This document shows, piece after piece, positions 31,051-31,170 of a stretch of 34,939 nt of DNA (position 1 is the first letter of the stretch; the number at the start of each line of letters is the position of its first letter). The stretch spans positions 1 through 34,939 of the forward strand of contig MFKY01000034.1 of assembly GCA_001781175.1 (NCBI GenBank), read 5' to 3'. The position numbers were made by a program, and so were the translations under genes. The notes under the pieces were generated by a model, which was given only the letters and a program-made list of their open reading frames with translations, was not told where the DNA came from and searched no databases. The stretch is from Candidatus Kaiserbacteria bacterium RIFCSPHIGHO2_01_FULL_55_37. GTDB lineage: Bacteria; Patescibacteriota; Minisyncoccia; Phycocordibacterales; UBA2100.

Positions 31051-31057
31051 GTACGGA

Positions 31058-31170
31058 TGTACCCCGTTAGAAGTCTTTCAACCGTTCCTGTTGCGCAACG
31101 CGATTGCGAAGGCTTTCACTCGCTTATTCAGTAGCACCATTTCTATGTCAGAAACTTCTAACGGGGTGTA
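31058..31170 (+). repeat. start-codon inverted-repeat element, copy 4 (lexA-like), with TGTA direct repeats
   Basis: CCCCGTTAGAAGT (31062-31074) / ACTTCTAACGGGG (31154-31166), perfect 13 bp; TGTA at 31058-31061 and 31167-31170. Confidence 0.9.

What the first reader, a model, noticed from the sequence alone, without database searches (positions are those of the whole stretch)
31057..31170. Same element between the SOS promoter and the lexA-like coding region
ATGTA-[CCCCGTTAGAAGT...79 nt...ACTTCTAACGGGG]-TGTACGAG. The ATG before the 5' arm lies 6 nt after the TATACT -10 box, the same spacing seen for other apparently leaderless genes here (2252, 13597, 18841, 26582). This suggests that ATG was the original start before the element arrived. 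Removing element plus TGTA gives ATGTACGAGACC, in frame with the repressor. An inserted hairpin here could also tune SOS repressor translation.
Basis: partly seen in the sequence, partly recalled or inferred. Interest (0 to 1): 0.9.

Follow-up and report, generated by a model that had tools for sequence, protein, structure and literature searches.

The report
Tiny jumping gene sits in lexA start
A 105-base mobile DNA element has inserted itself exactly inside the start codon of this bacterium's DNA-damage repressor gene, and its full-length relatives of about 280 bases carry only a miniature GIY-YIG nuclease gene, which points to a previously undescribed kind of very small mobile element that lands in start codons.

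Summary
The element at 31062-31166 (13-nt perfect inverted ends, 79-nt loop) is flanked by a 4-bp duplication TGTA. lexA orthologs without it keep the same LexA box and box-to-ATG spacing (two keep TATACT-N6-ATG), so ATG 31057 is the ancestral leaderless start. The element is one of dozens of dispersed copies. A near relative (80-88% identical) has precise empty sites for the rpmJ and aspS copies. In the two best-sampled genomes 42 of 59 copies sit at a start codon, mostly directly after ATGNN, and recreate one ((A/G)+TG). Elements with the same ends but 276-285 bp long encode only an 86-aa GIY-YIG nuclease. Its frame runs through the right terminal repeat (...SLTG, then TGA overlapping the host ATG) and can begin at the host ATG (MNPVRD...). 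About 40 of 392 class genomes hold one; reversed control pattern: none. Four further GIY-YIG elements have unrelated terminal repeats. So the lexA copy is a non-autonomous derivative of a GIY-YIG-encoding, start-codon-targeting mobile element. Insertion is shown; GIY-YIG as the mobilising enzyme is inferred; the effect on LexA level is untested. I found no description in the papers I could search.

The parts
31062..31166 (+). non-autonomous element in the lexA start codon (CCCCGTTAGAAGT ... ACTTCTAACGGGG, 105 bp)
   Evidence: TSD TGTA on both sides
31058..31061 (+). left copy of target duplication TGTA (part of ancestral ATGTA)
   Evidence: sequence
31167..31170 (+). right copy of target duplication TGTA
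   Evidence: sequence
31057..31134 (+). 25-codon upstream ORF from the ancestral leaderless ATG through the left end of the element (MYPVRSLSTVPVAQRDCEGFHSLIQ, stop TAG 31132-31134)
   Evidence: sequence
31021..31050 (+). lexA promoter with LexA box GTGAACCGTAGTTCAC between -35 TTGACG and -10 TATACT
   Evidence: sequence; box conserved in L169, L170, L171, L181
31145..31732 (+). lexA-like repressor (Peptidase_S24); likely present start ATG 31145 inside the element (adds MSETSNG), alternative GTG 31166 = last base of element + TG
5324..5401 (+). copy in the rpmJ start codon, TSD TGAA, restart ATG 5401
   Evidence: precise empty site in G003
19783..19864 (+). copy in the start codon of the class II tRNA synthetase gene (aspS-like), TSD TGGA, in-frame ATG 19846 inside the element
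   Evidence: precise empty site in G003
21262..21358 (+). decayed copy at the scpA start, left ATG lost, internal in-frame ATG 21307
   Evidence: empty site with ATGACC in G003

Best explanation
The hairpin is a 105-bp non-autonomous copy of a mobile DNA element that inserts with a 4-bp target duplication, preferentially directly after ATGNN of a gene's start codon (shown by empty sites and duplications). The last base of the element (G or A) plus TG of the duplication recreates a start codon, so the host gene survives. The full-length form (276-285 bp, same ends) consists almost wholly of a GIY-YIG nuclease gene, which can be read from the host's own start codon and whose stop TGA overlaps the recreated host start (shown by sequence). 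The nuclease most likely mobilises both forms by cutting at the folded or palindromic element ends and at the start-codon target (inferred). At lexA the leaderless mRNA now begins with a 25-codon upstream ORF and a long hairpin, and LexA is made by reinitiation at ATG 31145 or GTG 31166, probably at a lower or altered level (inferred, untested).
For: Exact arms and TSD. Orthologous lexA loci without the element and with the same LexA box and spacing. Precise empty sites for rpmJ (ACATGAAAGTAAAATCC) and aspS (TATGGAGCG) in G003. 104 of 195 terminal-repeat pairs across loci have a perfect 4-bp TSD. 42 of 59 non-tiny copies in G000+G003 stand at start codons: 41 with an ORF of at least 60 codons, plus rpmJ, which is shorter. 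Upstream ORFs across the element are open in 21 of 36 against 10.7 expected from shuffles. The 276-285-bp forms encode GIY-YIG: 42 of 392 class genomes hold a pattern match, nearly all GIY-YIG, with 0 reversed-pattern controls; Pfam E to 1e-16. In the top 120 of 3877 homologs 102 end SLTG (right repeat) and most 93-95-aa ones begin M-x-PVRD (host ATG plus left repeat). Catalytic-type Y, Y, R, H, E, N are invariant or nearly so. The fold matches UPF0213 and the branched-DNA nuclease Slx1. Small copies occur in 24/30 genomes with a GIY-YIG element against 11/30 without, P = 0.0014. Unrelated terminal repeats with TATG or TTGA duplications also enclose only GIY-YIG.
Against: No transposition was observed. 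The own genome holds no detected GIY-YIG copy with these ends (only a YhbQ-like one; assembly 90% complete). 11 of 30 genomes without an exact full-length match still carry small copies. Known GIY-YIG enzymes are not transposases, and TIR plus TSD is typical of DDE enzymes. Not every copy is at a start codon, and some have mismatched flanks (CTTG/TGAA).
Confidence: 0.78

Rival explanations
1. A conventional DDE transposase acting in trans moves elements with these ends; the GIY-YIG gene is cargo or a passenger.
For: Terminal inverted repeats plus a fixed 4-bp duplication are typical of DDE transposition.
Against: No longer element with these ends and a matching duplication enclosing a transposase was seen in the fetched loci; the two long candidates are pairs of short copies. 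GIY-YIG is the only gene inside, its frame reads through the terminal repeat, and four other GIY-YIG elements with unrelated ends also hold only GIY-YIG.
Confidence: 0.13
2. REPIN-like elements mobilised by a Y1 (RAYT) transposase.
For: Y1_Tnp genes are common in the genus and absent from some element-free genomes; short palindromic elements with variable interiors resemble REPINs.
Against: 10 of 35 element-bearing genomes have no Y1_Tnp; no association (P = 0.41). The Y1 genes looked at are not enclosed by these ends. True target duplications are not expected of Y1 single-strand insertion.
Confidence: 0.04
3. Not mobile: a conserved regulatory leader hairpin (riboswitch-like or attenuator) of certain genes.
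For: In copies shared by G000 and G003 the ends are 98% identical against 80% for the interior.
Against: Precise empty sites; duplications; many unrelated genes, both strands, several phyla; no Rfam family; shared-copy conservation is ascertainment-biased and one G003 copy has decayed ends.
Confidence: 0.03
4. An intron or translational-bypass element removed or skipped at the RNA or ribosome level.
For: Removal restores ATGTACGAG; duplicated flanks resemble take-off and landing sites.
Against: If removed or skipped it should be tolerated anywhere inside genes. Classified copies lie mostly at starts, at stops, or in frame in prepilin leader peptides (GFTPLE...LTGFTLIE), and a start codon is recreated. 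No Rfam intron match.
Confidence: 0.02

Closest known systems
MITEs (miniature inverted-repeat transposable elements)
   Same: short, non-coding, terminal inverted repeats, target duplication, many copies, derived from a longer coding element with the same ends
   Different: the longer element encodes a GIY-YIG nuclease instead of a known transposase; targeting of start codons
Free-standing GIY-YIG homing endonuclease genes and GIY-YIG insertions in CPR rRNA genes (PMC11270868)
   Same: GIY-YIG nuclease as the only gene; that paper notes CPR GIY-YIG insertions that match no intron and do not look spread by homing
   Different: dispersed sites with terminal repeats and 4-bp duplications rather than one homing site
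REPIN/RAYT
   Same: short palindromic elements with conserved ends and variable interiors
   Different: true 4-bp duplications, no dependence on Y1 transposase
Slx1 / UPF0213 (YhbQ) GIY-YIG proteins
   Same: closest solved folds
   Different: Slx1 is a host repair nuclease working with Slx4; the element protein is about 86 aa and encoded within terminal repeats
Penelope-like retroelements
   Same: a GIY-YIG endonuclease in a mobile element (PMC5718144)
   Different: no reverse transcriptase here; about 280 bp in all

Membership tests
MITE | terminal inverted repeats | tested here: met
   13-nt perfect
MITE | target site duplication and empty sites | tested here: met
   TGTA; TGAA and TGGA copies with precise empty sites
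MITE | derived from an autonomous element with a known transposase and the same ends | tested here: not met
   the longer element has GIY-YIG, no known transposase
GIY-YIG element (proposed) | same ends enclosing a GIY-YIG ORF in related genomes | tested here: met
GIY-YIG element (proposed) | GIY-YIG protein is the mobilising enzyme | not testable with these tools
   needs biochemistry or a mobility assay
REPIN/RAYT | presence of a Y1_Tnp gene in bearing genomes | tested here: not met
   10 of 35 bearing genomes lack it
Homing endonuclease | insertion at one homologous site | tested here: not met
   dozens of unrelated genes
Group I/II intron | intron RNA structure | tested here: not met
   no Rfam match in the window
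LexA repressor (downstream gene) | S24 peptidase domain and own LexA box | tested here: met
   PF00717 E 5e-28; GTGAACCGTAGTTCAC conserved in orthologs

The most novel reading that the evidence does not exclude
A new class of DNA mobile element: about 280 bp in all, encoding only an 86-aa GIY-YIG nuclease that acts as its transposase, with its terminal repeats inside the reading frame, that inserts into start codons, borrows the host's start and hands back a new one, and spawns even smaller passive copies such as the one in this lexA.
Probability: 0.65. Interest if true: 0.92.

Novelty: categorically new. Interest (0 to 1): 0.82.

Why it matters
To my knowledge no described inverted-repeat transposon uses a GIY-YIG nuclease, and at about 280 bp this would be among the smallest self-encoding mobile elements. 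It would explain many of the small 'GIY-YIG nuclease family' genes of Patescibacteria and show how a parasite can live in gene-dense genomes by landing in start codons without killing the gene. At lexA it places the SOS repressor behind an upstream ORF and hairpin, a directly testable regulatory consequence.

Tried and rejected
Y1/RAYT mobilisation: initial correlation in the genus did not hold in 60 class genomes. Longer transposase-bearing elements: the two long pairs (L101, L038) are separate short copies that happen to share a duplication. Rfam: no family. Intron and bypass readings: rejected on insertion positions. attC-like sites: core orientation is opposite to attC (from memory) and duplications are present. 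Phage origin: GIY-YIG protein has no match in phage records. Literature: sequence strings and keyword searches gave no description of these elements; subscription papers are not held.

Full report
WHAT IS THERE. The inverted repeat is exact: CCCCGTTAGAAGT at 31062-31074 and ACTTCTAACGGGG at 31154-31166 with 79 nt between. It lies between TGTA and TGTA, i.e. ATGTA[element]TGTACGAG. Upstream are a LexA box GTGAACCGTAGTTCAC between TTGACG and TATACT, and ATG 31057 six nt after the -10 box, the spacing also found at 2252, 13597, 18841 and 26582. The downstream gene carries a Peptidase_S24 domain and is followed at once by a Y-family polymerase gene, so this is a lexA-dinB-like operon.

THE ANCESTRAL START. 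L170, L173 and L175 begin M-Y-E/N, like the sequence obtained by removing the element and one TGTA. ATG 31057 is therefore the ancestral start.

A DISPERSED FAMILY. The own genome has 24 forward and 17 reverse single-end matches against 4 and 3 for the reversed control pattern, and the close relative G003 has 49 and 49. G003 is Candidatus Kaiserbacteria NC_groundwater_1723: its contig C1 has the length of JACRFK010000003, which also holds L096. The family occurs in many Patescibacteria and also in MAGs of Deltaproteobacteria, Omnitrophota, Nitrospirae and Planctomycetota. Over the loci in hand 104 of 195 pairs have a perfect 4-bp duplication, mostly TNNA. G003 is mostly 80-88% identical to the own genome at matched flanks and shows precise empty sites for the rpmJ copy (ACATGAAAGTAAAATCC against ACATGAA[78 bp]TGAAAGTAAAATCC) and the aspS copy (TATGGAGCG against TATGGA[82 bp]TGGACCG). 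These are insertions with a 4-bp duplication.

START-CODON TARGETING. Of 59 copies longer than 40 bp in G000+G003, 41 are followed by ATG or GTG formed from the last element base plus TG and by an ORF of at least 60 codons. The rpmJ copy makes 42, its gene being only 37 codons long. In most, the left flank is ATGNN, on either strand of the contig. Chance for an ATG in that place is about 3%, P about 1e-49 (copies shared by G000 and G003 are not independent). A few others lie at stop codons. In other phyla some lie in frame in prepilin leaders, giving GFTPLE...SLTGFTLIE. These are positions where a gene survives.

THE FULL-LENGTH ELEMENT. A 277-bp copy in G003 has the same ends and encodes a GIY-YIG nuclease in frame with the host ATG: M-I-P-V-R-D-...-FLSLTG, with TGA overlapping the recreated ATG. 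A pattern for 260-290-bp elements matched 42 of 392 class genomes with no control hit. Of the loci read, those with the ORF called are GIY-YIG, with TGAA, TATG, TGAG, TGAT or TTGA duplications. At least two matches (G072, G322) do not look like GIY-YIG. Pfam PF01541 E is 1e-13 to 1e-16. Among the 120 best of 3877 homologous clusters, 102 end in SLTG, which is the right terminal repeat translated. Lengths cluster at 85-86 and 94-95 aa, and most of the longer ones begin M-x-PVRD, which is the host ATG plus the left repeat. Y, Y, R, H, E and N positions expected for catalysis are invariant or nearly so. The predicted structure (pLDDT 89) matches UPF0213 and Slx1. Four more GIY-YIG genes have unrelated terminal repeats, 295-308 bp, with duplications TATG, TATG and TTGA and one imperfect TCAG/CCAG.

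WHO MOVES IT. Small copies are present in 24 of 30 genomes with a full-length GIY-YIG element and in 11 of 30 without (P = 0.0014). They are not associated with Y1 transposase (P = 0.41; 10 bearing genomes lack it). GIY-YIG is the only gene in every full-length element examined. That it is the mobilising enzyme is an inference. Its resemblance to Slx1, which cuts branched DNA, suggests a mechanism in which palindromic ends fold and are cut at their base. One 69-bp subfamily keeps its secondary structure with 6 pairs showing changes on both sides.

EFFECT AT lexA. The leaderless transcript would start with a 25-codon upstream ORF and a long hairpin (-36 kcal/mol, z -2.3). LexA would be made from ATG 31145 (adding MSETSNG) or GTG 31166. 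Across the family, upstream ORFs running through the element are open in 21 of 36 against 10.7 expected, consistent with translation through it. Whether LexA level changes is untested.

LIMITS. Most genomes are MAGs, and hits outside Patescibacteria may include binning errors. Conservation of the ends in copies shared with G003 (98% against 80% interior) is biased by how copies were found, and one shared copy has decayed ends. The class statistic counts exact-end matches only. The literature search was limited to open-licence papers. One of them reports GIY-YIG insertions in CPR rRNA genes that match no intron and do not look spread by homing (PMC11270868), which these elements could explain.

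Noticed in passing
L025, L032, L038: Copies of the element lie in frame in type IV prepilin genes at the cleavage-site codons (GFTPLE...SLTGFTLIE), so that the prepilin peptidase site is recreated.
   Followed up: partly
L248, L242, L254, L235: Small GIY-YIG genes enclosed by other, unrelated terminal inverted repeats with TATG or TTGA duplications (295-308 bp; L235 duplication imperfect): a wider superfamily.
   Followed up: partly
L006, L212, L277, L284, L060: Recurrent mismatched flanks CTTG on the left and TGAA or TGAG on the right of the element in unrelated genomes; not explained.
   Followed up: no
L206 1829-1855, L209 2133-2159 and others in G000/G003: Twelve tiny 27-31-bp hairpins with the same ends and mostly no duplication; relics or terminators.
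   Followed up: no
L253: A small GIY-YIG gene lies between two copies of what looks like a tRNA 5' part (GGGGGATCGTCTAAYGGTAG), as if inserted in a tRNA gene.
   Followed up: no
2252, 13597, 18841, 26582: Several genes show a -10 box six nt before ATG, consistent with leaderless mRNAs.
   Followed up: partly
30347-31021: Reverse-strand 224-aa ORF, divergent from lexA, without a Pfam match.
   Followed up: no
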